This document shows positions 1,639 through 44,037 of a stretch of 44,037 nt of DNA, in pieces; position 1 is the stretch's first letter; every line of letters begins with the position of its first letter. A program made the translations under genes and the position numbers. The stretch spans positions 1 to 44,037 of the forward strand of contig NZ_FUKM01000036.1 in the NCBI RefSeq assembly GCF_900163645.1. Direction: 5' to 3'. Source of the DNA: Halomonas citrativorans. Lineage in GTDB: Bacteria; Pseudomonadota; Gammaproteobacteria; Pseudomonadales; Halomonadaceae. The notes beneath the pieces are model-generated. The model searched no databases. It was given only the letters and a program-made list of their open reading frames with translations, and was not told the DNA's origin.

Positions 1639-1661
1639 ATAATGAGCCAAGACCTTACAAA

Positions 1662-1685
1662 AACGCCTCGCTTAAGCGAGGCGTT
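1662..1685. terminator. Bidirectional hairpin terminator between chrA and the HTH gene
   Basis: A perfect 10-base stem (AACGCCTCGC / GCGAGGCGTT) around a TTAA loop lies between two convergent genes, with A-rich and T-rich flanks. It is placed to stop transcription from both sides. Confidence 0.75.
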
Positions 1686-1712
1686 CGTGATTTAAAGGGC
1701 TAATGGCTGCTC

Positions 1713-1985
1713 CTATGGCGCCTCCAGCTCTAACGTGCGGCGCAGAACATTGAGCTCGTCAATATTCAGGTGCTCCAGCCTGCCGGCGAGCAAGTCGCTA
1801 ATCTTCTGTACTGGAAGCCCTGCCTGGCGGGCAATTTCCCGGCTTCCTAGATCTGATACTGCAATTAAACGCGTGATAATGCGCATTAGGCGCGTGCGTT
1901 TTTCTAATTCCCTGACATCGAGGTCAGGGCTGCTTCGCGGAGGATCCAGCGTTTCTGCGTGAGCAGTTGAGTATGCCGTACTCAT
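1713..1985 (-). CDS. Small helix-turn-helix protein (XRE/antitoxin-like)
   Basis: A 90-residue protein with one predicted helix-turn-helix in the C-terminal half (about residues 45-70: LGSREIARQAGLPVQKISDL), like XRE-type DNA-binding proteins and HigA-like antitoxins. The N-terminal 30 residues are polar and probably disordered. GGAG lies seven bases before the ATG. No partner toxin frame is seen on either side (chrA convergent, purE divergent), so this is either a lone regulator or an orphan antitoxin. The target is unknown. Confidence 0.75.
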   Translation of the reverse strand: MSTAYSTAHAETLDPPRSSPDLDVRELEKRTRLMRIITRLIAVSDLGSREIARQAGLPVQKISDLLAGRLEHLNIDELNVLRRTLELEAP

Positions 1986-2101
1986 GAGACTCCATTAGTC
2001 TGAAATGACAAGGACACAATGCCGCCAACGCAGGTGCTTTTCAATATTTAATTTGATGAAAATTTCGCGACACTTGTGAACACCCGATTGCGGCTTGGCT
2101 C

Positions 2102-2110
2102 TGGTAAACT
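2102..2110 (+). promoter_or_regulatory. Possible extended -10 promoter for purEK
   Basis: TGGTAAACT fits an extended -10 (TGn then TAAACT, 4/6 to TATAAT). No good -35 is found at 16-18 bases. It would start a leader RNA near 2116, just before the hairpin at 2127-2151. This is weak evidence by itself. Confidence 0.3.
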
Positions 2111-2126
2111 ATGTGCCTTATTTTAG

Positions 2127-2170
2127 CGTACGCGGCTGCTTCTGGCGTGCGGCACTTTTATCTTTTTTTT
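2127..2170 (+). terminator. Terminator-like hairpin and U-tract in the purE leader
   Basis: CGTACGC (2127-2133) pairs with GCGTGCG (2145-2151) with one G-U pair and an 11-base loop. After GCAC comes a T-rich run (2156-2170) of 14 T in 15 bases apart from one A and one C. No plus-strand gene ends upstream, so it is unlikely to be an ordinary end-of-gene terminator. It lies about 30 bases before the purE start. An outer pairing GTGCC (2113-2117) with GGCAC (2151-2155) would compete at base 2151. An attenuator is possible. Confidence 0.5.
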
Positions 2171-2198
2171 ATAAGGCCACTGGCCGGGGAGAAATGGC

Positions 2199-2714
2199 AT
2201 GTCGTCGAATAGCGCACCCAAAGTGGGCGTCATCATGGGGTCCAAATCGGATTGGCCGGTGATGGAGCACGCGGTGACGATGCTGGAGCGCTTAGGCGTT
2301 GCTTATGAAACGCGCGTGGTCTCTGCCCACCGAACGCCTGACTTGCTGTTCGACTATGCTAAAAGCGCCGCTGAGCGTGGCCTGCAGGTGATTGTGGCCG
2401 GTGCAGGCGGTGCAGCCCACCTGCCCGGTATGGTGGCCTCACAAACGCCGCTGCCGGTACTAGGTGTGCCGGTTGAATCCAAAGCGCTTAAAGGCCTTGA
2501 TTCACTGCTCTCGATTGCGCAGATGCCCGGCGGTATCGCCGTAGGCACACTGGCGATTGGTAAGGCCGGTGCGACCAATGCGGGCCTGCTGGCCGCGCAG
2601 ATTGTGGGCCTTCAGGATAGCGCTGTGCGTAACGCGGTTGAGGCCTTCCGTGCAGAGCAGACTCAACTAGTACTGGATAACCCGGACCCGCGCCCCGCGC
2701 CGGATGCTGAGTAA
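2199..2714 (+). CDS. purE: N5-carboxyaminoimidazole ribonucleotide mutase PurE
   Basis: Cytoplasmic enzyme of de novo purine synthesis that converts N5-CAIR to CAIR. The 171 residues match the usual class I PurE length. The nucleotide-binding start [14 protein letters not shown], the VVSAHRTPD segment containing the catalytic histidine, the glycine-rich [18 protein letters not shown] and the late [20 protein letters not shown] are all present. GGGGAG lies seven bases before ATG 2199; an ATG at 2194 is out of frame. It is followed 11 bases later by purK, so the two are co-transcribed and act in succession (PurK makes N5-CAIR). A terminator-like hairpin in the leader suggests control of read-through. 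Confidence 0.97.
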
Positions 2715-2725
2715 AAGGAGCCCCC

Positions 2726-3862
2726 ATGAACTCTGGTACGACAAACATCGGCGTTTTAGGCGCAGGCCAACTGGGCCGTATGCTGGCGCTGGCGGGCTAC
2801 CCGCTAGGCAATCGGTTTACGTTCCTGGATACTACGGGTAACCCAAGCGCAGGCATCGGCGAGGTCATTGTCGACCCGGATAATCAGCACTTGGCGGAGT
2901 TTCTCGCCAAGGTGGATGTTGTGACCTACGAGTTCGAGCATCTGCCGGTGACGCTTGTGCAGGAGATCGAAAAGCACAAGCCGGTGTATCCAAGTAGCCG
3001 AGCGATTGAGGTATGCCAAAATCGGGTTGAAGAGAAAGCCCTGTTTGATCGCTTGAACATCCCGACGCCTGCTTACCGTGTGGTCGAGAGCGCAGAGCAG
3101 CTTGAAACCGCCGCACGTGAACTTGGCTGCCCGGTCGTGGCAAAGTCCGTCACGGAAGGTTACGACGGTAAAGGTCAGGCGGTCCTAAAAGCCCCAGAAG
3201 AGGCGGCTGACGCTTGGCAAAGCATTGGCCATACGCAGTTGATCGTTGAAGCGTTTGTGGATTTTGTGCGCGAAGTTTCGATGATTGCTGTGCGCGGTCG
3301 CGATGGCGAGGTGGTTTTCTACCCCATGGCAGAGAACCAGCATGTAGGCGGCATTCTGCGTTACTCGGTGGCGCCGCTGCCGGACCTGGACGCCCAGGTG
3401 CAGCAAACGGCTGATACGTATATTCGTGCGCTGCTGGATGAGCTGGATTACGTGGGCGTGCTGGCGCTTGAACTCTTCCAAACCCGCGATGGCAGCCTGC
3501 TGGCTAACGAAATGGCGCCACGCGTGCATAACTCCGGCCATTGGACGATGGATGGTGCGGTTACCAGCCAGTTCGAGAACCATCTACGGGCGGTTCAAGG
3601 ATTACCGCTTGGCAGCACAGCGGCCATTGCGCCCACCTGTATGGTTAATGTGATTGGCCAGGAAGGTGACAACGTGGCCATGCTCAAGCTTGCCAATACC
3701 CACCTGCACCGCTACGACAAGGCCGAGCGGGCAGGGCGGAAGCTGGCCCACGTTAACGTGGTGGCCGCTACCCACGCTGAACTGCTGGAAAAGGTGCGCG
3801 CCTGCCAAGCACTGATACCCGATGCCCCGGCGGTTGAGTGGAGTTTTGAGCGCTCATTATAG
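2726..3862 (+). CDS. purK: N5-carboxyaminoimidazole ribonucleotide synthase PurK
   Basis: ATP-grasp enzyme that makes N5-CAIR from AIR, bicarbonate and ATP, feeding PurE. The N-terminal IGVLGAGQLGRMLALAGYPL nucleotide-fold segment, the VVTYEFEHLP segment, ATP-grasp KSVTEGYDGKGQAVL and the metal-binding LLANEMAPRVHNSGHWT region appear in the expected order. The 378 residues are of normal length. AAAGGAG precedes the ATG. It ends just before a strong terminator at 3884. Second gene of a purEK operon. Confidence 0.97.
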   Translation: MNSGTTNIGVLGAGQLGRMLALAGYPLGNRFTFLDTTGNPSAGIGEVIVDPDNQHLAEFLAKVDVVTYEFEHLPVTLVQEIEKHKPVYPSSRAIEVCQNRVEEKALFDRLNIPTPAYRVVESAEQLETAARELGCPVVAKSVTEGYDGKGQAVLKAPEEAADAWQSIGHTQLIVEAFVDFVREVSMIAVRGRDGEVVFYPMAENQHVGGILRYSVAPLPDLDAQVQQTADTYIRALLDELDYVGVLALELFQTRDGSLLANEMAPRVHNSGHWTMDGAVTSQFENHLRAVQGLPLGSTAAIAPTCMVNVIGQEGDNVAMLKLANTHLHRYDKAERAGRKLAHVNVVAATHAELLEKVRACQALIPDAPAVEWSFERSL

Positions 3863-3883
3863 ATAAGCGTTAATAAGTTACTG

Positions 3884-3917
3884 AAAAGGCGCCCCACGAT
3901 GTGAGGCGCCTTTTTTA
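3884..3917 (+). terminator. Rho-independent terminator of purEK
   Basis: AAAAGGCGCC (3884-3893) pairs with GGCGCCTTTT (3905-3914); the interior CAC/GTG adds to the stem, and T residues continue to 3916. A strong intrinsic terminator immediately after purK. Confidence 0.9.
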
Positions 3918-3920
3918 ATT

Positions 3921-3988
3921 CCGGTTTTAAGCTCTTTTTTAAGACCGTTTTAAGCTCTGTTTTTACGACCGTTTTAAGCTCTGTTTAA
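3921..3988. repeat. Three copies of a 24-base tandem repeat
   Basis: The core CCGTTTTAAGCTCTGTTT starts at 3921 (slightly diverged), 3945 and 3969, with an exact period of 24. It lies between the purEK terminator and the 3' end of the convergent TraX-like gene. No coding role is seen. Confidence 0.8.
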
Positions 3989-4012
3989 AGTCCCGCGAAC
4001 CAGCTTGGACGC

Positions 4013-4819
4013 TTACCAACCCAGCACAATACGCCCGCTCAGCAGTAGCCACAGCGCGATTAACGCAAAGTGCCCAGGGTACCAGGCCAGCCACAGCCTG
4101 CGTGGCATGGCAAACGTTACCGCAGGAACGCGCTGAGCCAGGCCAGCAGCAAGTATCAGCACCACGACACAGGTCCCCACCGTAAACGATTTCGCCATAT
4201 CCGAGGCGTTCATTTGTCCGGCAACCCAGAGTACGGGAAAGGCGGCCAAGCCTGCCCAAAGTCGCGCCTGAAAATGGGTGCCCGCTTGGCTAAGTGAATG
4301 CATGGCAAACATGAATAGTGGAATCAACAGCAGGCCGTTGTGGCCGTATTCCACCCAGAAACCGAGCAGGTACCACACCGTGACGCCCACCGCGGTGCCC
4401 AACAGCAGCCAACCAAACCCCAGCGTTTGCTGTTGGTAGTGCTGCCAGCCTTGGCGGGCCAGTGTGCCCAAGACCAGGCCACTGGCCAGCGTAAAGCAGA
4501 CGTTAAAGATCAACGCATCCGATGCGCGTGGCATCATCATGTAAGGGAGTTGAGCTACCAGCCCGATAATCAGAATACGCCGTGAATAACGCAGTGGGTT
4601 ACGGGTATTAAATAGCCCGTGCCAAGCGACCATGGCGGCAAACAGCGGAAAGGCAATCCGGCCAATAGAGGAGCCTGCCCAGCTAAAATCCCCAGGCAAT
4701 ACATAGCGGGTAAGGTGGTCTACCGTCATGGTAATGAGCGCGAGCCACTGGCCCCAGCCTGTCCAGTAGGAAGACGGGCGTCGGTTGATGTCTGGTGTGG
4801 CGCTGAGAGTTGCTGCCAT
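4013..4819 (-). CDS. TraX-family integral membrane protein
   Basis: A 268-residue polytopic membrane protein. Recognisable TraX-type features are LALITMTVDHLTRY near the start, IGRIAFPLFAAMVAW, NPLRYSRRILIIGLVAQLPY and a later WVEYGHNGLLLIPL. Founding TraX of the F plasmid N-acetylates pilin, but many chromosomal members have no conjugation genes nearby, as here; the acyl acceptor is unknown. AGGGAGG precedes ATG at 4819 by five bases. It is convergent with purK and monocistronic. Family call is good; function open. Confidence 0.82.
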   Translation of the reverse strand: MAATLSATPDINRRPSSYWTGWGQWLALITMTVDHLTRYVLPGDFSWAGSSIGRIAFPLFAAMVAWHGLFNTRNPLRYSRRILIIGLVAQLPYMMMPRASDALIFNVCFTLASGLVLGTLARQGWQHYQQQTLGFGWLLLGTAVGVTVWYLLGFWVEYGHNGLLLIPLFMFAMHSLSQAGTHFQARLWAGLAAFPVLWVAGQMNASDMAKSFTVGTCVVVLILAAGLAQRVPAVTFAMPRRLWLAWYPGHFALIALWLLLSGRIVLGW

Positions 4820-4874
4820 AAAACCTCCCTGTTTTTATGACTAAATTACGGTGATAGCGAAATGACGTTTCATC

Positions 4875-4937
4875 GCTATATGGGTTATATCGGCTATATC
4901 GGCTATATCGGCTGTATGAGCTATATCGGCTATATAA
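4875..4937. repeat. Seven 9-base tandem repeats, consensus GCTATATCG
   Basis: Seven consecutive nonamers begin at 4875 (GCTATATGG, GTTATATCG, then GCTATATCG variants) and end at 4937. The tract lies upstream of the TraX-like gene (minus strand) and downstream of the ABC operon. The rest of 4820-5118 holds only the terminator listed below. A length-variable microsatellite near a promoter is possible. Confidence 0.85.
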
Positions 4938-5071
4938 ACGTAGTGAATGATACAGAGACTCTCACACACTGACCTGGTTCATTCCAAGGGGCAGCGTGCT
5001 TGTTCATGGCCAGCGTACCTGGTTTTTAAGCTGCTGATGCAAGGAGAAAAAAGGCAAGGGCGTAAATAAAC

Positions 5072-33142: not shown

Positions 33143-33457
33143 TTACCCCTGAGCTACCCAGGATTGACACCAGCCACCAGGTTCAACGCTGTTTTCAGGA
33201 AACAGCTGGCAGCCTTGATTACCAGAGGTATAAAACATGCAGTTGTCGCACCGTTCACCTGATGTATAAGCAGGGTGGTCGCTGGCATCGCTCGCTTTTT
33301 CAACATAGCTCAGCGCTTGGGCACTCGGTACGGAAGGGTCAAGGCGAGGTAGCGATTGAGCAAAGGCCGTTTTCGATAAAATACCGATGCCCAAGGGTAG
33401 GGTTGCCAGCCCCCATATACTGGTGCGTATAAAATGACGGCGGCTCTGATTAGCCAT
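33143..33457 (-). CDS. High-potential iron-sulfur protein (HiPIP) with Tat signal
   Basis: A 104-residue periplasmic 4Fe-4S electron carrier. The twin-arginine signal SRRHFIRTSIWGLATLPL is cut near TAFA (about residue 33). Cluster ligands are C70, C73, C83 and C97 with the HiPIP spacing CxxC-x9-C-x13-C. AAGGAG precedes the ATG. HiPIPs pass electrons to terminal oxidases or photosynthetic reaction centres; here a respiratory role is likely. Monocistronic. The 389 bases upstream (33458-33846) hold only weak inverted repeats such as CGGTCA/TGACCG (33534-33564). Confidence 0.94.
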   Translation of the reverse strand: MANQSRRHFIRTSIWGLATLPLGIGILSKTAFAQSLPRLDPSVPSAQALSYVEKASDASDHPAYTSGERCDNCMFYTSGNQGCQLFPENSVEPGGWCQSWVAQG

Positions 33458-34203: not shown

Positions 34204-35067
34204 GTGGGGATATCGTTTTGGCGCTGGCGTCGAGAGGGGCGACGTCTGGGCGTTGCTTTGCTGTTTGTGGTCGCGGGAGCTGGGTTATGGGAGTTTCAGG
34301 AGCGTCAGCATCAGGATGCGTATACCTGGATGGGCGTTCCCACGTGGGAGAGTTTTCATCCCACAACGTTTCACCGCGTATTACGCAATGAGGGCTATTT
34401 AGTTGGCTGGTCGGATGTGCGTGTTAACCCGCTGTGGGTGAGTTACCAGCTGGAGGCGGTGCCGGAAGGGACGCAGATTGGCTCACGGCCCAATTTTCAA
34501 GCGGATTGGCGGACCCTCTGGCCGGTAAAAACCGACAGCTATGCCCGTAGTGGCTATGATCGGGGGCATATGGCACCTAACTATGCCATTGCCGCAGTGC
34601 ACGGGCGCGATGCCCAGGTTGATACGTTTTTGATGAGTAACATGACGCCGCAGCGGCCTAATCTAAATCGTCAGCTATGGCAGCGGTTGGAAGAGTCGGT
34701 GATCAACCACTTTGCGCCGCGTTTTGATCGCGTACAGGTGATTACCGGGCCGATATTCCCTGAACATTTCATGGATAATGTGTTTAATCGGGTGGGCTTT
34801 GTCGAAGTGCCAGAGGCGTTCTATAAGATTATTGTTGCCCCACACGATGAGGCACCGCTCGCACTGGCGTTCATCATGCCCCAGGGTGTTCGCGGCAACG
34901 AGCCGTTAGATGATTACCTGGTCACTATTAATGAAATAGAAGCGCGTACTGGGCTTAATTTTTTCCCGGACCTGACACCCGAAATGGAAACCGTGCTGGA
35001 AGGTGAGTTGCGCACGCAAGGGTGGGCGCTGGAGGAGGTGGCACGGCGACCAGGGCGTTTTCAGTAA
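34204..35067 (+). CDS. Membrane-anchored DNA/RNA non-specific endonuclease (NUC1)
   Basis: A 287-residue beta-beta-alpha-metal nuclease. An N-terminal membrane anchor (LGVALLFVVAGAGLW) would place the enzyme in the periplasm. The catalytic DRGH motif is D119-H122 in GYDRGHMAPN, followed by the metal-binding asparagine region SNMTPQRPNLNRQLW. Start is GTG 34204 after a purine-rich GGGGAGTAGGGG. It may degrade extracellular or periplasmic nucleic acid, for nutrition or defence. No immunity gene is adjacent. Confidence 0.9.
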   Translation: MGISFWRWRREGRRLGVALLFVVAGAGLWEFQERQHQDAYTWMGVPTWESFHPTTFHRVLRNEGYLVGWSDVRVNPLWVSYQLEAVPEGTQIGSRPNFQADWRTLWPVKTDSYARSGYDRGHMAPNYAIAAVHGRDAQVDTFLMSNMTPQRPNLNRQLWQRLEESVINHFAPRFDRVQVITGPIFPEHFMDNVFNRVGFVEVPEAFYKIIVAPHDEAPLALAFIMPQGVRGNEPLDDYLVTINEIEARTGLNFFPDLTPEMETVLEGELRTQGWALEEVARRPGRFQ

Positions 35068-35165: not shown

Positions 35166-37628
35166 TCAGTTAAATGCGTAATTCAAGCCAAGCCAGAAAG
35201 AGCGTCCAATCTGATAGTTGCTGGTATTACCTGTGACCCTGTCGAATATATTTTTAATTCTAAAATCAACTGAGGCGTTGTGGATGTTTTTGTTTAAAAA
35301 ATAATATTTAATATTCGTATCAACGGTCGTCAAAGACCCCGTGTTAGTGTCCTCATAGATATCATAAGTGTTGCCCTCATTGTCTGTATAGTTTTCTCTG
35401 GAATCGGTTAAATACTCGTATTTACCGCGATAATTTAAACTGGTATCAGTAATTAAATTGCCGTTAAGCCAGCCCGTTGCCCAGTTCACAGAGGCTTTGA
35501 AGGGGGCTGCGAAGTTTTGCCGTGCATCTTGTTCGCGTAGGTCGGCCATAGACATGATTGCATTGCTGTAATAGACGAGCTCATTTTGATCGTCGGCTTC
35601 ATACGTATAATCAACGGCTCCATTAGTCCGAGTTTCTGACCAAACCACGTTTGCATTGAAAAAATGGCTTTTATAGCTACCAGACCACTCCAACGCATAA
35701 CCAAGATAATCCGTTTCTCCATCGTTAGACATCGTATAGTAATCATTGCCATCACGATCCGTAAGCTTTTCGCTGCGAGAGAACTGGTCGCGGTTTTCAC
35801 GATACACGACTTTAGGGCGCAAGTGGCCATTCAGTGGCGTTGGAATCGTCAGTGACGCCGTCAACTCGTCACTATAAGGGGTCTGCAGGTTAGAGGAAGA
35901 GTAGTTGGTAACCGAGGGTTGAAAGTTACAGGCATCCCACTTGCCTGGTACTCCGCCATAGCTGTTATCGGGGGCGTTTTTTAACTGGCGCTCGTAGCAG
36001 GTGTGGACTGGAACTTGCTCATTAATCGCATACCCTACCATGTTTCTTCCAAAGTAGCGGTTAGCGCCTAGCGTTAAAAATGTATCAGGAACAAACTGCC
36101 AAGTGCCCGTCAGGCGGGGCGCCACGTTATGGTTGCCCAGAAAGTCGTCATAGGAGTAACGCGCGCCTGCGCGAATATCTATATTTCCGTAAGTGTTTAG
36201 ATATTCGCCCCAAAGCGAATGATTATAAATACTTACCTCAGCATTAAACGGTTGATAGACCAAATCTCTTGAGGCGGCATTTAGGCCATTACAAGCAGGG
36301 TCACCGGGTGCGCAGCTAAACTCTTCACTACCGGCAGAGCGGGATAAATAATAGTAGCGAGCTTCTTCATCACGACTCTTCTGTGCGTTGGAATAGTTTA
36401 ATTCGCTCCCATAATTAAGTGTGCCGCTTTGCAGGTAGGTAGAAAAATCTGTTTTCCACGTATAGTCTGTTTGCGTTTGATTAAGGTTGCCCACCCCGCC
36501 TTCAAAGCAGTTGCGTGTTGTAAAGCACCAGTCAACTGAGTCCCCTCGCCATGCAATGCGTTGATTCCTGGCATGGCGGCTTGAATTGTTGTGCATCAGA
36601 GAGAGTTTGCTTTCCCAACTGGTCGTATCAAGGAAGCCTGATGCGGAAAAGTATCCCTGAGTTCCGTTGGAATCGCTGGTGGTCAAACCGTTATAAGTAT
36701 TTGGTAGATCGCGCTCGCTACGATAAGGGCTGTGAGCTATTTGCGCCTCGAACGTCAAATCATTGCTATAGAGGTAGCGCCCTTTGAGTAAAAAGTTTTG
36801 CGAGACATCGCCGTTATAGTGCGTCAAGGACCCAAGCTCAGGATCTTTCTTGTACTGAACGTTGGATTCTGCTCTGGTATAGCCGGCTAACAAGAAAAGC
36901 TTATCGGTGACGGGGAGATCAACCGTTACTGATGTTTGGTACTTTGTGAAGTCAGCAGGAGCGTCAAGCGGATCATCTTCATCAGGGATAGGAGCATGAT
37001 ATTTGACTAAGCTGTCACTTTGAAAGCCCGTCGTTATATTGAATGAAAATTCATCTTTGGGTTGGCGAATTTCGTAATTAACGACTCCCCCGATAAAATC
37101 GCCATACTTGGCCGAAATGTTGGAGTCGAATACTTCCACGTTACCAATAAGTGTTGGATCAATGTAAAAGGTTTGAGAGGTTTGTGTGTAAACGTTGTTC
37201 CAATCGTTGTCGCCCGAGGCCGCTGTTACATCATGTAGTGACGTTGCGGAGACACCATCAATACTTATGTTGTTATCGTAGTAATTACCACCTGAAATCG
37301 AAAAATCCTGCGGCCTAAATGACTGTATGTTTTCTTTTGTGGCATCGTCCGAACGTGCATCCATCTGGACAAATGGAAGAGGGCGCAACAGTTCTGTTGT
37401 ATCAATTCCACCTCCACGCCTGTTTTCTACCGCTTGACCACTAATGACCGACAACCCTGAATTAATAGGGTCGTAGCTTTCATAGGCAGGGCTGACACGC
37501 TCAATGTTTGAATAGATTGAGGCCTGTTCAGTAATTTCGATTTCTCCAAGGTCAATCTTTTCGTCACTCAGTACGGCACTCGAGCTAACCGCTGATAGAA
37601 AAGTGCACCCCAAAGCAGCTTTTCTCAT
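35166..37628 (-). CDS. TonB-dependent outer-membrane receptor, probable protein/peptide importer
   Basis: An 820-residue TonB-dependent receptor. Signal peptide about residues 1-21; plug roughly 45-210 (SGLSVISGQAVENRRGGGID, YDNNISIDGVSATSLHDV, YGDFIGGVVNYEIRQPK); then a 22-strand-type barrel ending GLNYAFN, with N instead of the usual terminal aromatic. Three close cysteine pairs lie in the barrel: C368/C374, C439/C446, C544/C567, likely disulfides in surface loops. A possible TonB box is GEIEITEQA near residues 28-36. Divergent from the M16 protease-SbmA-ExbBD-TonB operon with a Fur-box match between them. In Fus-like systems the matching receptor takes in a whole small protein; substrate here unknown. 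AAGGAG lies ten bases before the ATG. Base composition is A/T-richer than the flanks. Confidence 0.9.
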   Translation of the reverse strand: MRKAALGCTFLSAVSSSAVLSDEKIDLGEIEITEQASIYSNIERVSPAYESYDPINSGLSVISGQAVENRRGGGIDTTELLRPLPFVQMDARSDDATKENIQSFRPQDFSISGGNYYDNNISIDGVSATSLHDVTAASGDNDWNNVYTQTSQTFYIDPTLIGNVEVFDSNISAKYGDFIGGVVNYEIRQPKDEFSFNITTGFQSDSLVKYHAPIPDEDDPLDAPADFTKYQTSVTVDLPVTDKLFLLAGYTRAESNVQYKKDPELGSLTHYNGDVSQNFLLKGRYLYSNDLTFEAQIAHSPYRSERDLPNTYNGLTTSDSNGTQGYFSASGFLDTTSWESKLSLMHNNSSRHARNQRIAWRGDSVDWCFTTRNCFEGGVGNLNQTQTDYTWKTDFSTYLQSGTLNYGSELNYSNAQKSRDEEARYYYLSRSAGSEEFSCAPGDPACNGLNAASRDLVYQPFNAEVSIYNHSLWGEYLNTYGNIDIRAGARYSYDDFLGNHNVAPRLTGTWQFVPDTFLTLGANRYFGRNMVGYAINEQVPVHTCYERQLKNAPDNSYGGVPGKWDACNFQPSVTNYSSSNLQTPYSDELTASLTIPTPLNGHLRPKVVYRENRDQFSRSEKLTDRDGNDYYTMSNDGETDYLGYALEWSGSYKSHFFNANVVWSETRTNGAVDYTYEADDQNELVYYSNAIMSMADLREQDARQNFAAPFKASVNWATGWLNGNLITDTSLNYRGKYEYLTDSRENYTDNEGNTYDIYEDTNTGSLTTVDTNIKYYFLNKNIHNASVDFRIKNIFDRVTGNTSNYQIGRSFWLGLNYAFN

Positions 37629-37678
37629 TCGTATTCGACTCCTTGATATCTATACGGTTTAGTAGCTGTTGTCAGCGA

Positions 37679-37684
37679 ATCATA
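37679..37684 (-). promoter_or_regulatory. Possible -10 of the receptor gene
   Basis: On the minus strand TATGAT (5/6 to TATAAT) lies 51 bases before the receptor start. The Fur-box match would then cover its -35 region. No strong -35 hexamer is seen. Confidence 0.4.
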
Positions 37685-37702
37685 ACATGTTAATATGAGA
37701 AC

Positions 37703-37721
37703 GCTAATGAAAATCATGATC
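37703..37721. promoter_or_regulatory. Fur-box match between the receptor and protease operons
   Basis: GCTAATGAAAATCATGATC agrees with the classic 19-base Fur consensus GATAATGATAATCATTATC at 16 of 19 positions by hand count. The 7-1-7 core (37708-37722) agrees at 12 of 14. Its position near the receptor promoter fits iron repression. The protease operon starts 180 bases away on the other side, so shared control is possible but less certain. The rest of 37629-37901 shows no other element I can name. Confidence 0.72.
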
Positions 37722-37901
37722 ATTTGCTTTCTTGTGCGATGAATGATTAGCTTCGTAATGTGGGCGTCAACTGCCCGAAAATTTGCGGTAGGGCGCATCA
37801 CTCTGACTACTCATGTTTCGTCTGGTCGGAGGGAATGAGTGATCAAAAGAATAATTAACCATGACTGAGCGTCGGGTCTTTCTATCATTAAGGCGGGTGT
37901 A

Positions 37902-40715
37902 ATGTTTTGCAGAGAGCGTTATAAGAGTGGGAGCAAGCTTTGCTCAGCTGTGTTGATTGTTTTTAGTCTGTTTGTGCTGGGTAATATTGCTAAAGCACAA
38001 GAGCTGCAGTGGGATGAGTCGATTGAACAGGGGCGTCTTGAAAATGGGTTTCGCTATATCATTCACGGTAGTGATAACCCTGATGAGCCTTTTAATTTAC
38101 GCTTAATCGTTAATGCGGGTTCTGTCGACGATGAGCAGCGTGGTATGGCGCATATTGTTGAGCATATGGTGTTTCGTTCAAATAGAGCTCATGAGCCGGA
38201 TGTTTTTGCGTTTCTGGATAGTATTGGCTGGGAAACAGGCAAGCAAGTGAATGCTGTTACCCGTCAAACTGAAACGCAATTTATGATTCGAACGCGTCCA
38301 GACGATGCATTGGATATACGTGAATCAATTATTCTGCTTAATGACCTGGCGTTCGGCGCTAAAATGCTTGGCACTGACTGGGATGTTGAGCGTGAAGTGA
38401 TTTTTGAAGAAATGCGCCGGGGGCAAAGCGTTGCCTCGCGTGTTAACGATGCTAAAAAAGCAATTGTTCGCAACGGGTCTCGATATGTAGACCGTCCCAC
38501 CATAGGAAGGCTGGAGGATATACAGGCTGTCACGGCTGAACAAATTACAGCTTTCTATAAAAAGTTTTATGTGCCGGGCAACATGACATTGATAGTGTCA
38601 GGGTATGTCGATACTGATGAAACGATCACCAGCATACATGAATCCTTCGGCCAAGAAGCTTTTGTAGAGCCCCCAATACGTGATTACATTGAGTTACCTC
38701 TTGAGCCTGGTCTGGTTATTGGTAAGGTGCAGGATGATCAAGGCACCAGTTCAGCCGTTACCTATGGGTTTCGGTCGCCCGTCGCTCCTCATGCCACGCT
38801 AGAGGGGCAGTACGCTCGCCTACAGAACTACTTCATAAGAAAACTGCTGTTTAATGAAATAAGAAACACGCCCTTGGCCATATCCAGTGACTTTAAGATG
38901 GTTTCGACATTAAGGTCGTCAAATAATGAGCGATTGATCACCGCTATTTCAGCTAAAACAACAGATTATGCAAATGGGCTTGAAGCGGTATTAACGGAAG
39001 TTGAAAGGCTTAACCGTGATGGATTGAATGAGGGTGAATTTGAAGCCCTGAAAGATAGTGCTCGCCAGGCAGTTCAGAGAAATAGAGAGCTGGTGGCTCA
39101 GCGGGATTTTGCCAAATGGGAAGATAAGCTCTCCGAAGCGGTTATCAAAAATACGGTTGAGGAAAATTATACTGAAAAATCCGCTCGTCTTCTAAGCTGG
39201 ATTGAGGAGATGACGATTGAAGAGTTAAACGCGCGTGCAAGATACCTGCTGTCTTCACCTGATCAGTTTTTATTTTATCAAGTGCCTGGTGATAGGCAGG
39301 CTGACCTACCAAGTGTAGAAGAGGTGATGGCGCTTGCTGAAGAGGTATCCCAAGGAAGTTTAGCTGTTATCGAACACGCTGAGCATCAACCCGTGTCATC
39401 TTTTTCTGATGAGCGTGAGACACCAGAGCCTTTGGATGCTTATGAAGAAGTGAACTTGTCTGATGGGCAGGTTAATGGTGCTTACCCGGTTAGCCATAGG
39501 GTCTCGTATCCTCAAGATGGTATAACTGAATGGCAATTGGAAAATGGCGACAAAGTTGTTTGGCTCAACAGATCAACACCAAGCGGCAATATCTATGTCA
39601 AAGCGCTTTCTTCTGCAGGATATTTTAACAATAAAGTATCGCCCTGGCTTTCACAGTTAGCCGTGCAGATTTGGGAGCAAGCCGACGTAGATGTTGTAGT
39701 AAGTTCCCGGCTTGAGGCATGGGAACAGAAAAATGAAATTGATTGGTCATGGGCGCATAAACAGAATGAGCTGGATATTGCGACTATCATTGGTCGAGAT
39801 AAATTAGATAGCTTATTTAAAAGCTACTTGATCCGCCAAAATCACTGGCGTTTTGATAGCGGGGCGATGGCTGATGTGCAGAATCAGCTCTTTGAGCAAA
39901 TTAACGCAAGAAGTGCTAACAGTATGCTGGAAGAGGCGTTTTTTAGTGCCTCAGAGGAGTTGCATCCTTCAGAAAATGAAGCTGAACAGTTAGCGGCTAA
40001 CGATATCGTATCTGCCATCAATGAACTACAGAAACAGCCCGTCACGATATTTCTTGTGGGAGAGCTAAGTGAGAGTGAGATTTTAGAAAATGTCCTTCCG
40101 TATATCTCTTCTATTCATCGAGAAAGCACATTGCTATCCTCTTATGGCAGCATTCCTGATGGAGATAGATATTTAGCCTCTGAAGTTTTTGATGATCAAA
40201 GAGCCATGATAAGAATTAAGTCTGAGTCCAGTTATCAGTGGACGCCAGAACGTGCTTTCGTTGTATCCACCTTGAATCCGATTATTAAAAGAGCTTTAAA
40301 GAGAAAGTTAAGACATGAGCTGGGCGGCATTTATACATTGAGCTTTGAGATAACACTCGATAGAGATAATAGAGCGAGATCCGAGGCTAAATTTTACACT
40401 GGCTCTGAGAAAGTGCCATCTATAGTTGCGGCTTATCAGGATGTAATGGAAAGCCTGAATGACTGGATGAAAAGCGAAAATTTTAACCAAATAAGAGAAG
40501 ACGTTAATTACTCTGAAGCCATTCGGATGGCTGACTCCAATACTTGGCTTCGTCGTTTGGCGCTTAGTTATGAAGCGTACGATTCTCCGCATTATTTAGG
40601 TTCTTTTGATGATCTTGGGGCATTGGTCTCTGAAGTATCATTGTCCGATGTTATAGGAGAATTAATGCCTATGGCGCATCAGTCGGTCTTTGTAGGCCTT
40701 CCTGTTACTAACTAG
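37902..40715 (+). CDS. Periplasmic M16 zinc metallopeptidase (PqqL/FusC-like)
   Basis: A 937-residue pitrilysin/insulinase-family protease. Signal peptide ends near AKA (residue 32). The inverted zinc motif HIVEH is H84, E87, H88 in GMAHIVEHMVF; the third ligand region EREVIFEE gives E170. It has four M16 modules in two halves, the second lacking HxxEH, typical of this family. The length is close to E. coli PqqL. The signal peptide places it in the periplasm, where FusC-type enzymes cut proteins brought in by a partner TonB receptor. First gene of a tight five-gene operon; divergent from that receptor. Confidence 0.9.
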   Translation: MFCRERYKSGSKLCSAVLIVFSLFVLGNIAKAQELQWDESIEQGRLENGFRYIIHGSDNPDEPFNLRLIVNAGSVDDEQRGMAHIVEHMVFRSNRAHEPDVFAFLDSIGWETGKQVNAVTRQTETQFMIRTRPDDALDIRESIILLNDLAFGAKMLGTDWDVEREVIFEEMRRGQSVASRVNDAKKAIVRNGSRYVDRPTIGRLEDIQAVTAEQITAFYKKFYVPGNMTLIVSGYVDTDETITSIHESFGQEAFVEPPIRDYIELPLEPGLVIGKVQDDQGTSSAVTYGFRSPVAPHATLEGQYARLQNYFIRKLLFNEIRNTPLAISSDFKMVSTLRSSNNERLITAISAKTTDYANGLEAVLTEVERLNRDGLNEGEFEALKDSARQAVQRNRELVAQRDFAKWEDKLSEAVIKNTVEENYTEKSARLLSWIEEMTIEELNARARYLLSSPDQFLFYQVPGDRQADLPSVEEVMALAEEVSQGSLAVIEHAEHQPVSSFSDERETPEPLDAYEEVNLSDGQVNGAYPVSHRVSYPQDGITEWQLENGDKVVWLNRSTPSGNIYVKALSSAGYFNNKVSPWLSQLAVQIWEQADVDVVVSSRLEAWEQKNEIDWSWAHKQNELDIATIIGRDKLDSLFKSYLIRQNHWRFDSGAMADVQNQLFEQINARSANSMLEEAFFSASEELHPSENEAEQLAANDIVSAINELQKQPVTIFLVGELSESEILENVLPYISSIHRESTLLSSYGSIPDGDRYLASEVFDDQRAMIRIKSESSYQWTPERAFVVSTLNPIIKRALKRKLRHELGGIYTLSFEITLDRDNRARSEAKFYTGSEKVPSIVAAYQDVMESLNDWMKSENFNQIREDVNYSEAIRMADSNTWLRRLALSYEAYDSPHYLGSFDDLGALVSEVSLSDVIGELMPMAHQSVFVGLPVTN

Positions 40716-40725
40716 GTTGTTAACT

Positions 40726-41733
40726 ATGTTTAGATGTTTCTTTTTGAATAGACAGTGGTGGGCCTGGTCCTGGTTGGGCGCGACCGCCATTTTGTCGGCC
40801 ACTTATTATCAGGTTCATCTGGATGTTAAAATAAATGAGTGGTTTGGGAGTTTTTACGATACGATTCAGCAGGCCTTGGCTGAGCCAGGTGCAGTGGAGT
40901 CCACGGATCTTTTATTGCATATGCTAACGTTTGGAAAAATTGCAGCTATCTTTGTTGTGGTTGCCATTCTATTGGATTTCTTTGTTCGTCACTATGTTTT
41001 TCGTTGGCGTTCAGCTATGCACCACTATTATATGGAGAGCTGGGATAAAGTGCGTCATATAGAAGGCGCGGCTCAGCGTGTGCAGGAGGATACAATGCGT
41101 TTTGCTCAGCTCGTACAAGGGCTAGGTACGTTTTTGTTGAGGTCTGTTTTAACACTTATTGCTTTTCAGCCGCTACTTTGGGAATTAAGTAAGCAAGTGA
41201 AAGAGGTGCCCCTGCTGGGAGAGGTTGATCATATATTAATCTATGTTGCGATTATATCTGCAATATTTGGAACTGCATTAATGGCTTTGGTTGGTATAAA
41301 GCTTCCGGGTCTTGAATTTAATAATCAGAGAACTGAAGCTGCGTTAAGAAAAGAGCTTGTTTTTGGAGAGGATGACGAAAAAAGAGCTCAGCCTGAGTCA
41401 ATTAGAAGTTTGTTTGATTCTGTGCGGCACAATTACGTGACCATGTATCGTCATTATCTCTATTTTGACTTGGTTAAACACTCCTATTTACAGTTATCTA
41501 CACTCATGCCCTATATTATAATGGCACCTACTATTGTGTCTGGTGCTATTACATTAGGTGTTTTGCAGCAAATTCTTAGAGCCTTTAATAAAGTTGAAGG
41601 CGCATTGCATTATCTGGTTTTTAGTTGGGCAAGTATTGTGGAGCTTATTTCTGTTTATAAGCGTTTAAATGCTTTTGAAAATAAAATGATCGAACTTAAT
41701 CGTCAGGAGGTTTTAACTGGTTATGCAAGCTGA
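40726..41733 (+). CDS. SbmA/BacA-like inner-membrane peptide transporter
   Basis: A 335-residue membrane protein matching SbmA from about its residue 60 onward. Shared blocks include HYVFRWRSAMHHYYMESW, HIEGAAQRVQEDTMRFAQL, LTLIAFQPLLWELS, VGIKLPGLEFNNQRTEAALR, KELVFGEDDEKRA and LISVYKRLNAFE near the end. SbmA imports peptides (microcins, proline-rich antimicrobials) by proton motive force. This copy lacks the first N-terminal span of SbmA (usual length about 400) and has no ATPase domain, unlike the ABC-type YddA/FusD. ATG 40726 is 10 bases after the protease stop; an in-frame TTG at 40717 is possible. It overlaps exbB by 11 bases. A/T-rich. Confidence 0.88.
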   Translation: MFRCFFLNRQWWAWSWLGATAILSATYYQVHLDVKINEWFGSFYDTIQQALAEPGAVESTDLLLHMLTFGKIAAIFVVVAILLDFFVRHYVFRWRSAMHHYYMESWDKVRHIEGAAQRVQEDTMRFAQLVQGLGTFLLRSVLTLIAFQPLLWELSKQVKEVPLLGEVDHILIYVAIISAIFGTALMALVGIKLPGLEFNNQRTEAALRKELVFGEDDEKRAQPESIRSLFDSVRHNYVTMYRHYLYFDLVKHSYLQLSTLMPYIIMAPTIVSGAITLGVLQQILRAFNKVEGALHYLVFSWASIVELISVYKRLNAFENKMIELNRQEVLTGYAS

Positions 41734-42340
41734 TAAGTGGGTTATTGTGACATTTATACCCTTGGCGATTTGTTCGATCGCTGCCTTGGCATTGATCATG
41801 GAGCGATGCTTCTACGTTTTTAGTAAGCGCGGTCTTGATAAACAGCATTATAAAGATATGACATTAGCACTAAAGCGTCGTGATTTGAGTATGGCTATCC
41901 GCATTCTTGAAATAAACGAGCGGGGTTATCAGGATGCTATTGATGAATTAAGGCTGCATCAAGGAGGCGATAAGCAGCTTCGTGATGAAGCCGTTAAAAT
42001 TGCGCTCATGCGGTACGCTAATCTATTAAGACGTCGAATGTCGGGCCTGGTGACGGTCGCGGCTTTAGCGCCCATGCTTGGCTTATTAGGCACGATTGTT
42101 GGCCTTATGCGCTCTTTTTATGACATTGGGTTGAGTGAGGGGCCAGTGGAGCCCGCTACTGTGGCCGATGGCCTTTGGCAGGCGCTGTCGACGACGGCTG
42201 CTGGTATGGTGATTGCCGTCGTGTGTATTCTTTTTCATGCACTTATCGGGTCTTATATTCGGCGTCATCTCGCTGAGGCCACCGAGGTTATGAACTATAT
42301 CTCGCATAACTTGCAGTTGGGGTCTGGGTGTCATGATTGA
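41723..42340 (+). CDS. ExbB/TolQ-family proton channel subunit
   Basis: A 205-residue inner-membrane protein with three spans (about 5-28, 105-130 and 155-178), the MotA/TolQ/ExbB layout. The conserved channel segments LAPMLGLLGTIVGLMRSF and LWQALSTTAAGMVIAVVCIL carry the family threonines. The start overlaps the transporter gene; an AGGAGG site lies slightly far (14 bases) upstream. With ExbD it energises TonB. It is coded inside the receptor-protease cluster, so it likely serves that receptor specifically. Confidence 0.93.
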   Translation: MQADKWVIVTFIPLAICSIAALALIMERCFYVFSKRGLDKQHYKDMTLALKRRDLSMAIRILEINERGYQDAIDELRLHQGGDKQLRDEAVKIALMRYANLLRRRMSGLVTVAALAPMLGLLGTIVGLMRSFYDIGLSEGPVEPATVADGLWQALSTTAAGMVIAVVCILFHALIGSYIRRHLAEATEVMNYISHNLQLGSGCHD

Positions 42341-42761
42341 GTTGGATGATGAAGAGCAGCGCATGGCGCTGCAAGATATCATGACTCCTATGATAGACGT
42401 TATTTTCGTTCTTATTGCCTTCATGATGTTAATGATTAATGTGCCTTTGCAGGTTATGGAGGTTAATCTGCCGGCATCAGATGAATCAACAAGCCTGTCC
42501 TCTAGTGATAAGCATCTAGCAATTCTTGCTGTTAAATCCGAAGGCCCGGCGTGGCTTTTGGATGACCAAGTGATTGAAAGTAATGATAGTTTGTACGAAC
42601 ATCTGGCGATGTTGAAAACGGCGCATGGCGAGCAACTGGAAATTGTGGTTCAGAGTGACCGGGAAGCGCCAATGGAAAGGGTGGTGACCCTTTTTTCTAT
42701 TCTCCAAAAGCTGGATCTTGAGGTGGCAAACCTGGCCTTGCAGCGTTCTGGAGAAGGATAG
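42333..42761 (+). CDS. ExbD/TolR-family proton channel subunit
   Basis: A 142-residue protein with one N-terminal span carrying the essential aspartate (D22 in TPMIDVIFVLIAFMML, equal to ExbD D25), and a periplasmic ExbD/TolR domain (PLQVMEVNLPASDE through DREAPMERVVTLFSIL). The start overlaps exbB by eight bases and the gene ends two bases before tonB, so coupled translation is likely. Confidence 0.93.
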   Translation: MIELDDEEQRMALQDIMTPMIDVIFVLIAFMMLMINVPLQVMEVNLPASDESTSLSSSDKHLAILAVKSEGPAWLLDDQVIESNDSLYEHLAMLKTAHGEQLEIVVQSDREAPMERVVTLFSILQKLDLEVANLALQRSGEG

Positions 42762-42763
42762 AA

Positions 42764-43657
42764 ATGCCAAGGTTGATGTCGCAACGCATTGGTTTTTATG
42801 TAGGCTTATCTGTCTTTTTGCACTTAATAGTGGGCGTTTTCTGGTTAAAGCAGGATGCAGATTCTGTCGTGGCGACCAAAGCTACCGAAAGCGTTTCCAT
42901 GAGCGTAGGGTTGCAGGCCGCCATGGCGGGGGGGGAGCAAAAGAGTGATGCTACCCAGCCCGACACGGCTCAAGCGAAAGTACCTTTAGTCACAACGTCG
43001 GACTCGGCCCCTAAGGAGGCTCTCCAAGAGGTTGTCGATGAGCCTTTGTCAGAGCTTCCAGAGCCAGCAGAAGATAAGGCGGCCCCTCCTGTTGAACGCA
43101 GAAGCCCAGTGGCCAAGACTGATAAACCCGTACCAGAACCCGTACCCGATCCTGTCGTGGCTGAACGGCCTGATCCGGTTAAACAATCAGAGCCGACCGC
43201 GCAGCTTGAGCAAGTCGAACAGCCTTTGGTCAATCAGAAAGCCGTCGATAATACTCAGGCTGAAAATGAAATGGTGGAGGCAGTGGCTGGCCACGCCGGC
43301 GAAGATGGTTCTTCAGCCGAGGGGGTGGTCATGGAAGAAACGGGGATTGCTCAGGCTAACAGTGCGGATGTCGATAACCGGTATGATTTATTGGTTCGTC
43401 AGCACTTGCTTGAAAACAAGCAGACGCCCAGAGTGATGGGGGCTCGCCGCATAGAGGAGGTGATTACGGTTGAGTTCACGCTGGATCGCAATGGCAACGT
43501 GTTAAGCCATCAGTTGGTAGGATTATCCCGCGTGCGAGAATTAAACCAGGCGGGTGGCCGTTTAGTGGAAAGCGCTATGCCTTTCCCTCGTGCTCCCGCT
43601 GGTATTAGCTGGCAGAGTAGGGTGTACACCATCGACGTGCGTTACCAGATCAAGTAA
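42764..43657 (+). CDS. TonB-family energy transducer
   Basis: A 297-residue TonB protein. The N-terminal span (residues 9-28) keeps the SxxxH motif exactly at S16 and H20, as in E. coli TonB. A long periplasmic linker rich in proline, glutamate and lysine follows (PEPVPDPVVAERPDPVKQ). The C-terminal domain (about 205-297) has VITVEFTLDRNGNVLSHQLV and a late AMPFPRAPAG. The usual YP before the domain is replaced by TPRVM. AAGGA precedes the ATG. Last gene of the operon; no clear terminator follows (43658-43843 shows nothing firm). Confidence 0.93.
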   Translation: MPRLMSQRIGFYVGLSVFLHLIVGVFWLKQDADSVVATKATESVSMSVGLQAAMAGGEQKSDATQPDTAQAKVPLVTTSDSAPKEALQEVVDEPLSELPEPAEDKAAPPVERRSPVAKTDKPVPEPVPDPVVAERPDPVKQSEPTAQLEQVEQPLVNQKAVDNTQAENEMVEAVAGHAGEDGSSAEGVVMEETGIAQANSADVDNRYDLLVRQHLLENKQTPRVMGARRIEEVITVEFTLDRNGNVLSHQLVGLSRVRELNQAGGRLVESAMPFPRAPAGISWQSRVYTIDVRYQIK

Positions 43658-43843: not shown

Positions 43844-43930
43844 TGGTGCCCAGGAGAGGACTTGAACCTCCACGTCCATACGGACACTAGCACCTGAAGC
43901 TAGCGCGTCTACCAATTCCGCCACCTGGGC
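43844..43930 (-). tRNA. tRNA-Leu (anticodon CAG)
   Basis: An 87-base cloverleaf read on the minus strand: acceptor GCCCAGG / CCTGGGC with encoded CCA, D-arm GGCGGAATTGGTAGACGC, anticodon stem-loop with CTAGC-TTCAGGT-GCTAG giving CAG, long class II variable arm, and T-loop GGTTCAAGTCC. Its 3' end faces the tonB cluster. Confidence 0.96.
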
Positions 43931-43971: not shown

Positions 43972-44037
43972 TGGTGCCCAGGAGAGGACTTGAACCTCCA
44001 CGTCCATACGGACACTAGCACCTGAAGCTAGCGCGTC
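43972..44037 (-). tRNA. Second tRNA-Leu (CAG), cut by the window edge
   Basis: Bases 43972-44037 repeat the 3' part of the preceding tRNA-Leu exactly, including anticodon CAG, variable arm, T-arm and CCA. The 5' end lies beyond the window. The two copies are 41 bases apart. Confidence 0.95.

What the first reader, a model, noticed from the sequence alone, without database searches (positions are those of the whole stretch)
35166..43657. Fus-like protein/peptide import machine: TonB receptor, M16 protease, SbmA-type importer and private ExbB-ExbD-TonB
Seen: a TonB-dependent receptor divergent from a tightly packed operon of secreted M16 protease (HIVEH intact), SbmA/BacA-like transporter, ExbB, ExbD and TonB. 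Known: Pectobacterium FusA/B/C/D imports plant ferredoxin and cuts it with an M16 protease to release iron; E. coli yddA-yddB-pqqL has the same logic. Inferred: this is a complete route in which a substrate protein or large peptide crosses the outer membrane, is cut in the periplasm, and fragments enter the cytoplasm. The inner-membrane step and the dedicated motor differ from the described systems, so this could be a distinct class.
Basis: partly seen in the sequence, partly recalled or inferred. Interest (0 to 1): 0.87.

Follow-up and report, generated by a model that had tools for sequence, protein, structure and literature searches.

The report
Proton-powered iron-protein importer gene cluster
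A bacterium, likely of the Halomonas group, carries a likely mobile set of six genes predicted to pull a small iron-containing protein or large peptide through its outer membrane, likely cut it between the two membranes and likely bring the pieces inside on the proton gradient rather than ATP, a variant of the protein-import system known from the plant pathogen Pectobacterium.

Summary
Window 35166-43657 holds a TonB-dependent receptor divergent from an operon of M16 protease, SbmA-family transporter, ExbB, ExbD and TonB. The receptor is FusA-class (PDB sequence hits: FusA and YddB only; predicted fold ranks them 1 and 2) and the protease FusC-class. The receptor groups apart from eight E. coli siderophore, vitamin and PQQ receptors. 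The set recurs: 14 of 14 distinct loci of this receptor clade have ExbB-ExbD-TonB beside the protease; 7 also have the same SbmA subfamily. Both refutation conditions fail. Here the ATPase half and TM0 are absent and five of six SbmA ladder glutamates are kept; 0 of 70 loci carry both types nearby. A 16/19 Fur-like box lies in the divergent promoter, FhuF follows TonB in four Vibrio clusters, GC is 45% against 54%, and in 18 of 24 congeners a tRNA-Leu array follows the flanking nuclease gene without the cluster. Verdict: new variant of Fus-type protease-associated import, probably proton-driven at both membranes, probably for iron. Substrate unknown; nothing tested at the bench.

The parts
35166..37628 (-). 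FusA/YddB-class TonB-dependent receptor, 820 aa, signal peptide (by eye), DLG motif near the mature N-terminus; seven Cys, six of them in three successive pairs (368/374, 439/446, 544/567)
   Evidence: Pfam Plug; PDB sequence hits only FusA 2.9e-45 and YddB 7.6e-32; AF2 model pLDDT 83, Foldseek rank 1 FusA, rank 2 YddB; tree; Cys and N-terminus
37530..37553 (-). predicted TonB box, receptor residues 26-33 (DLGEIEIT)
   Evidence: majority consensus VDLGxxxI of 41 aligned receptors, L27 nearly invariant; DLG in all 8 clade receptors printed; role inferred
37703..37721 (.). Fur-like box in the divergent promoter, 16 of 19 to GATAATGATAATCATTATC
   Evidence: 0 of 200 dinucleotide shuffles reach it; only 19-mer with 15 or more matches on the + strand of the 44-kb window; consensus recalled
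37902..40715 (+). FusC-class M16 protease, 937 aa, signal peptide (by eye), HIVEH intact (codons 84-88 at 38151-38165)
40717..41733 (+). SLiPT (SbmA/BacA) family transporter, 338 aa, no NBD and no TM0; five of six glutamate-ladder residues kept (E203 position is Gln)
41723..42340 (+). ExbB-type motor stator, 205 aa
42333..42761 (+). ExbD, 142 aa, membrane Asp in MTPMIDVIF
42764..43657 (+). Dedicated TonB-like protein, 297 aa, clade-specific C-terminal domain (HLLxxKxxP where FusB and other TonBs have a YP motif)
34204..35067 (+). left flank: DNA/RNA endonuclease gene that marks the insertion site
   Evidence: found in 24 of 24 other same-genus genomes searched, 0 of 13 of other families of the order
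43844..43930 (-). right flank: tRNA-Leu(CAG); a second copy begins at about 43974 and is cut by the contig end
   Evidence: an array of these tRNAs lies within 0.5 kb of the nuclease gene in 18 of 24 congeners

Best explanation
The cluster encodes a FusA-class TonB-dependent receptor, a FusC-class M16 protease, an SbmA-family transporter without an ATPase half, and its own ExbB, ExbD and TonB, which together are predicted to import a small iron-bearing protein or large peptide, likely cut it in the periplasm, and likely carry the pieces into the cytoplasm on the proton gradient. Shown by sequence: the gene set, its families, the intact zinc motif, the membrane Asp of ExbD, the absence of Walker A and signature motifs in the transporter, five of six SbmA glutamate-ladder residues, co-conservation, a Fur-like box in the shared promoter, and the place between a genus-wide nuclease gene and a tRNA-Leu array. 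Inferred: (1) Fur derepresses the cluster when iron is low; (2) the receptor captures the substrate in a large outer pocket; (3) the private ExbBD-TonB motor opens the plug and, as reported for FusB, may pull on the substrate itself; (4) the M16 chamber cuts it and frees the cofactor or peptides; (5) the SLiPT imports fragments or fragment-bound iron by proton symport; (6) in Vibrio relatives FhuF reduces the ferric iron in the cytoplasm. Both membrane steps would then run on the proton motive force, where the Fus system is thought to use an ABC transporter for the inner one.
For: Receptor: PDB sequence search gives only FusA (2.9e-45) and YddB (7.6e-32); model TM-score to FusA 0.81/0.82, best siderophore receptor 0.58/0.66; in a 73-row tree it lies with FusA/YddB-type receptors, apart from eight E. 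coli siderophore, vitamin and PQQ receptors (SH-aLRT 100). Protease: FusC 2.6e-88, PqqL 1.5e-39; Foldseek ranks FusC 1-2 and PqqL 3. Transporter: SbmA 6e-101; ladder E193, E269, E276, E287, E378 kept in window and L103, all six in L118, L119 (= L131), L120, L132, L135 and L125; 18 of 18 ABC-type rows lack Glu at 203, 269 and 287; no Walker A in five SLiPTs tested, present in four of four ABC-type proteins tested. Set: of 70 FusC-class loci, 15 (14 distinct, as L119 and L131 are one record) have ExbB, ExbD and TonB within 6 kb of M16; 8 (7 distinct) have SLiPT; 18 have the ABC type; 0 have both. The 14 motor-linked receptors are one clade; 7 operon SLiPTs are one clade, 95/88, with EcSbmA and BacA outside. 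Iron: Fur-like box 16/19, and 11 of 14 clade loci have one of 14/19 or more in at least one of two promoter stretches (0 to 6 of 200 shuffles); FhuF after TonB in L118, L119/L131, L132, L125. Mobility: GC 45.4% against 54.0%; empty site in 18 of 24 congeners; 2 of 275 family genomes carry the protease.
Against: No substrate is known. The closest relative, L103, has only a 13/19 Fur-like match (10-11 of 200 shuffles reach it); L002 and L125 also reach only 13. FhuF is not in the two clusters of the window's genus; the genome has one elsewhere. Six of 14 clade loci lack an SLiPT nearby (L002, L121-L124, L138) and L125's copy groups with an unlinked V. xiamenensis SbmA, so the transporter is not obligatory to the unit. 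The window and L103 have Gln at the E203 position, a residue whose loss inactivates or slows E. coli SbmA according to PMC13316013 (passages). The M16 tree does not put the 14 motor-linked proteases in one clade (11 of 14 together). The TonB-like protein misses the TonB_C cut-off. The M16 model fits FusC only at TM 0.56-0.59.
Confidence: 0.7

Rival explanations
1. Peptide-nutrient or RiPP uptake: the receptor brings in large peptides (for example competitors' ribosomal peptides or environmental proteins), M16 cuts them, and SLiPT imports the fragments for carbon and nitrogen or detoxification; iron is incidental.
For: SbmA-family transporters carry peptides (PMC13316013 passages); M16 proteases cut peptides (recalled); no FhuF in the window cluster; weak Fur-like match in L103.
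Against: Fur-like boxes in 11 of 14 clade loci, FhuF in four distinct Vibrio clusters, and homology to FusA/FusC, whose known substrate is an iron protein (PMC7593965 passages).
Confidence: 0.17
2. Siderophore or metallophore system: the receptor takes a peptide siderophore, M16 trims it, SLiPT carries the ferric siderophore into the cytoplasm, and FhuF reduces it.
For: The FhuF neighbours are named siderophore-iron reductase; on a Photobacterium damselae plasmid a TM0-less SLiPT directly precedes a TBDR annotated with siderophore transport.
Against: Receptor groups with FusA/YddB, not with the siderophore receptors tried; a 937-residue M16 protease is not a usual siderophore enzyme (recalled); none of the seven proteins scanned is a siderophore-synthesis protein (the rest of the 44-kb window was not annotated).
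Confidence: 0.1
3. The set is a chance or decayed neighbourhood: unrelated import genes that happen to be adjacent.
For: SLiPT is not near M16 in 7 of 14 distinct clade loci, and 3 of 14 proteases fall outside the main motor-linked clade.
Against: Same order in the window's genus and in Vibrio, chromosome-sized contigs and plasmids alike, overlapping reading frames, intact motifs in the parts examined.
Confidence: 0.03

Closest known systems
Pectobacterium ferredoxin uptake system FusABCD
   Same: FusA-class receptor, FusC-class M16 protease, dedicated TonB-like protein, inner-membrane transporter whose membrane half is homologous to SbmA
   Different: Here the transporter lacks the ATPase half, ExbB and ExbD are encoded in the operon, the receptor is divergent, TonB is last and its C-terminus lacks the HRRVNYP stretch of L018/L019; the Pectobacterium loci read here (L018, L019, L024) show no ExbB or ExbD within 6 kb of M16
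E. coli yddA-yddB-pqqL
   Same: receptor, M16 protease and SbmA-related inner-membrane transporter side by side
   Different: YddA is annotated as an ABC transporter and no TonB, ExbB or ExbD is in the 11-kb stretch fetched; YddB and PqqL score lower against the window's proteins than FusA and FusC
Vibrio pelagius pATCC25916 and Vibrio sp. THAF190c plasmid clusters
   Same: identical order: TBDR divergent from M16, putative transporter, ExbB, ExbD, TonB
   Different: followed by fhuF, beside ParA/ParB genes on plasmids of 396 and 519 kb; annotated gene by gene, not named as a system in the tables returned
E. coli SbmA and Sinorhizobium BacA (SLiPT family)
   Same: same family, ungapped alignment to SbmA residues 73-400 and five of six ladder glutamates
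   Different: no TM0, own clade, E203 position is Gln in the window and L103; meets NCBIfam PRK12369 'putative transporter' (423.8 of 385 bits) but not SbmA PRK11098 (450 of 492)

Membership tests
Fus-type protease-associated import system | receptor homologous to FusA/YddB and distinct from other TonB-dependent transporters | tested here: met
Fus-type protease-associated import system | genetically linked M16 protease of FusC/PqqL type with intact zinc motif | tested here: met
Fus-type protease-associated import system | inner-membrane ABC transporter FusD/YddA | tested here: not met
   membrane half only, no Walker A, no NBD gene in the operon; PMC6793856 calls cluster make-up diverse (section 6), so I read this as a variant
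Fus-type protease-associated import system | dedicated TonB-like protein (FusB) | tested here: met
   motif differs from FusB
Fus-type protease-associated import system | imports an iron protein intact and cuts it in the periplasm | not testable with these tools
   needs bench work
SLiPT (SbmA/BacA) transporters | SbmA_BacA domain without NBD | tested here: met
SLiPT (SbmA/BacA) transporters | glutamate ladder E193, E203, E269, E276, E287, E378 | tested here: inconclusive
   5 of 6 in the window and L103; 6 of 6 in L118, L119/L131, L120, L132, L135, L125
SLiPT (SbmA/BacA) transporters | N-terminal TM0 | tested here: not met
   open frame of 345 codons, alignment starts at SbmA residue 73
TonB-ExbB-ExbD motor | ExbB and ExbD families with conserved membrane residues (recalled), TonB C-terminal domain | tested here: met
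   TonB_C itself under cut-off, TonB_2 and TIGR01352 over
siderophore or vitamin receptors | receptor groups with them in a tree | tested here: not met
   eight E. coli receptors as comparison

The most novel reading that the evidence does not exclude
An ATP-free, wholly proton-driven protein-to-cytoplasm import line: a private ExbBD-TonB motor hauls a folded iron protein through the outer membrane, an M16 chamber cuts it, and a stripped-down SbmA moves iron-carrying peptide fragments into the cytoplasm, where FhuF-type reduction frees the iron; the unit travels on megaplasmids and tRNA-adjacent islands among marine bacteria.
Probability: 0.35. Interest if true: 0.82.

Novelty: new variant of a known kind. 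Interest (0 to 1): 0.62.

Why it matters
Fus is the worked-out case of a bacterium importing a whole protein for its iron (to my knowledge); that FusD carries the product across the inner membrane is a hypothesis in the papers seen. Here the ABC transporter is replaced in the same slot by its proton-driven relative, and the outer-membrane motor is supplied too, so the inner-membrane step and its energy source become directly testable by gene removal in laboratory strains. It would also give SbmA-family transporters, known mainly as entry doors for antimicrobial peptides, a likely physiological job.

Tried and rejected
Rejected: (1) the SbmA-type gene as an importer unrelated to FusD: FusD/YddA carries the same membrane half. 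(2) Siderophore-type receptor. (3) The motor as wholly unique: L044, L048, L049 have a motor next to a TBDR-ABC-M16 set. (4) Receptor, protease and motor as one strictly co-inherited unit: 3 of 14 proteases fall outside the main clade (that tree was not drawn, so I do not name the three). (5) HiPIP-like ORF 33143-33457 as part of the system: it lies in the left flank and has a counterpart in L103's flank (by eye). Led nowhere: a 369-genome class sample at E 1e-60 found only the window's own genome; the TonB search gave 4 proteins at E 1e-5 including the window's own; among 58 relatives 42 have some M16 match at E 1e-3, but the best besides the window is 9.1e-29 at 29% identity (G041, not followed).

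Print: the listings show no title or abstract start describing an M16 protease with an SbmA-family transporter and ExbBD; one search gave 0 papers with all four words. PMC6793856 has no ExbB, ExbD, SbmA or 'ABC transporter' in its main text, but its Fig 2 drawing and S1 Table could not be read here, so an earlier drawing of such a locus is not excluded. Papers seen: PMC6793856 outline with abstract, passages and section 6; PMC6071955, PMC13253070, PMC13316013, PMC7593965, PMC5095587, PMC11658791 passages only; others in search listings only.

Rows dropped: short genome search stubs (L001, L082-L102, L104-L117, L126-L130) before the neighbourhood scan; then loci whose M16 ORF scored 600 bits or less or had 850 aa or fewer (among them L051, L054, L056) before the count of 70; L131 (same record as L119), L021 and L053 (receptor in two ORFs) from the receptor tree; L131, L021, L051 from the M16 tree. 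The presence calls rest on my own profiles built from the window's and fetched proteins, E 1e-3, not on Pfam. A first SLiPT tree had wrong reading frames for L104 and L105 and was replaced.
Full report
What is there. Receptor 35166-37628 (-) faces away from a five-gene operon 37902-43657 (+): M16 protease, SbmA-family transporter, ExbB, ExbD, TonB-like. The operon is packed with gaps of 1, -11, -8 and 2 bases. Pfam and NCBIfam agree with the family names; the weakest are the receptor barrel model and TonB_C, both under their cut-offs, while Plug, TonB_2 and TIGR01352 pass.

Receptor. A sequence search of the PDB at E 0.1 returned two molecules only: the ferredoxin receptor (FusA, 4zgv, 2.9e-45) and 6ofr (7.6e-32); 6ofr is E. 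coli YddB (title). An AlphaFold2 model (mean pLDDT 83, pTM 0.83) has FusA at rank 1 (TM 0.81/0.82) and YddB at rank 2 (0.75/0.81), then a siderophore receptor at 0.58/0.66. In a tree of 73 receptors with eight E. coli siderophore, vitamin and PQQ receptors as outgroup, the window's receptor lies among FusA/YddB-type receptors; the branch between the two sets has SH-aLRT 100. The tree is of the quick kind, the root was placed by the outgroup, and several E. coli rows are long branches. VDLGxxxI near the mature N-terminus is the majority consensus of 41 aligned receptors and is the predicted TonB box. A Plug search of the genome gave 11 matches; this one scores lowest.

Protease. FusC (6b03, 2.6e-88) and PqqL (1.5e-39) head the distinct molecules of the PDB list; the model's Foldseek list is headed by FusC twice and PqqL (TM 0.56-0.59 to FusC, so the overall superposition is only moderate, possibly because the two halves sit at another angle). 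The zinc motif HIVEH stands at 84-88, and H84, E87, H88 are invariant in 28 aligned sequences.

Transporter. It aligns without gaps to E. coli SbmA 73-400 (6e-101). Five SLiPTs tested have no Walker A motif, four of four ABC-type relatives tested do. Its open frame has 345 codons, so the TM0 segment of SbmA is missing. PMC13316013 (passages) lists the proton-coupling ladder as E193, E203, E269, E276, E287, E378, says that loss of one inactivates or slows SbmA, that YddA lacks E203 and E287, and that the SbmA family likely arose from a YddA-like ABC transporter. Mapped here: window and L103 keep five and have Gln at 203; L118, L119/L131, L120, L132, L135 and L125 keep all six; 18 of 18 ABC-type rows lack Glu at 203, 269 and 287. 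Seven operon transporters form a clade (95/88) next to, not inside, the SbmA/BacA group; L125's copy groups instead with an SbmA elsewhere in the V. xiamenensis genome. So a transporter of the proton-driven kind stands in the slot that an ATP-driven relative fills in Fus and Ydd systems.

Motor. ExbB and ExbD are aligned with 12 others and keep the MIDVI stretch of ExbD in all 13 rows. The TonB-like proteins of 13 loci share 23 invariant columns, among them H214, L215, K219 and P222 of HLLxxKxxP, and lack the HRRVNYP stretch of L018/L019. The genome has two further ExbD/TolR matches, so this is an extra, dedicated set.

Conservation. G251's contig of 228387 bases has the length of the contig of proteins named Halomonas aquamarina, which is how I place the host in the Halomonas group. 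Of 70 FusC-class loci (69 distinct), within 6 kb of M16: receptor in 66, ABC type in 18, SLiPT in 8 (7 distinct), ExbB, ExbD and TonB together in 15 (14 distinct), SLiPT and ABC together in 0. Three of the four without receptor are on contigs under 5 kb. The 14 receptors with the motor are one clade (100), and 9 of 9 loci of the Vibrio family carry the motor. The sample was drawn through the protease, so it cannot show how often the receptor occurs without it. Against strict co-inheritance: only 11 of 14 motor-linked proteases group together, and the SLiPT needs at least two changes on the receptor tree. L044, L048 and L049 show another motor beside an ABC-type set.

Iron. The only 19-mer with 15 or more matches to the recalled Fur consensus on the + strand of the 44 kb lies between the divergent genes (16 of 19; 0 of 200 shuffles). 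Of 14 clade loci, 11 have a site of 14 or more in at least one of two promoter stretches (0 to 6 of 200 shuffles as good there); L103, L002 and L125 do not (13 at best); several rows are close relatives. FhuF follows TonB in L118, L119/L131, L132 and L125, with Pfam FhuF over its cut-off for L118. The window's cluster has none; one FhuF lies elsewhere in the genome.

Mobility. The cluster has 45.4% GC against 54.0% in the first 35 kb. The left-flank nuclease gene is present in 24 of 24 other same-genus genomes searched; in 18 of these 24 two or three tRNA-Leu(CAG) genes follow within 0.5 kb, and in 6 none is within the 1.5 kb read. The window has the same tRNA at 43844, after the cluster, and L103 has the cluster between the same two markers. 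Two Vibrio relatives are on plasmids of 396 and 519 kb next to ParA/ParB genes. This fits gain by transfer at one site; loss elsewhere is not formally excluded.

How it most likely works. Shown: parts, families, motifs, linkage, site. Inferred: low iron lifts Fur; the receptor binds a small iron protein or large peptide; ExbBD-TonB drives entry, perhaps pulling the substrate as FusB does (PMC7593965 and PMC13253070, passages); M16 cuts; the SLiPT takes fragments or fragment-bound iron in by proton symport; FhuF-type reduction follows in Vibrio. FusD as carrier of the freed cluster is itself a hypothesis in the papers.

Relation to what is known. It works like Fus and meets the receptor, protease, linkage and dedicated-TonB features, but not the ABC-transporter feature, so I file it as a variant and not as Fus proper. 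Grinter et al. describe cluster make-up as diverse and name marine clusters (PMC6793856 section 6), and their main text has no ExbB, ExbD or SbmA; figure drawing and supplement were not read.

Noticed in passing
33143-33457 (-): ORF read by eye as a Tat-exported HiPIP (high-potential iron-sulfur protein); it lies in the left flank and has a counterpart in L103 (15433-15747).
   Followed up: partly
L174:7001-10133 (Photobacterium damselae plasmid): A TM0-less SLiPT annotated 'putative transporter' sits directly before a TonB-dependent receptor annotated with siderophore transport, hinting at a wider link of short SLiPTs with TonB-dependent uptake.
   Followed up: partly
   Followed up: partly
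L138:13889-14951 and L003:12885-13923: A DUF4920 protein and a PepSY-TM-like membrane protein follow the receptor in L138 (Pfam); L003 has a look-alike pair after the protease (by eye). A possible other periplasmic or inner-membrane step.
   Followed up: partly
L044, L048, L049 (about 1600-5000): ExbB (444-468 aa), ExbB, ExbD, TonB set divergent from a TBDR-ABC-M16 cluster: a second kind of motor linked to YddA-type systems.
   Followed up: no
L007:12763-14383 and L026:5382-6997: Genes that look by eye like an ECF sigma factor and FecR-type anti-sigma factor accompany M16 and receptor in Rhizobium and Marinomonas.
   Followed up: no
43974-44037: The contig ends inside a second copy of the tRNA-Leu(CAG) repeat, a likely reason for the assembly break.
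   Followed up: yes
L164 with L154 (G019): The flank nuclease gene is present twice, about 3 kb apart, in one congener.
   Followed up: no
G041:C1:317166-318803 and 282971-284041: The next best M16 matches among 58 relatives (9.1e-29 and 2.9e-24) lie about 33 kb apart in one genome of the same order.
   Followed up: no
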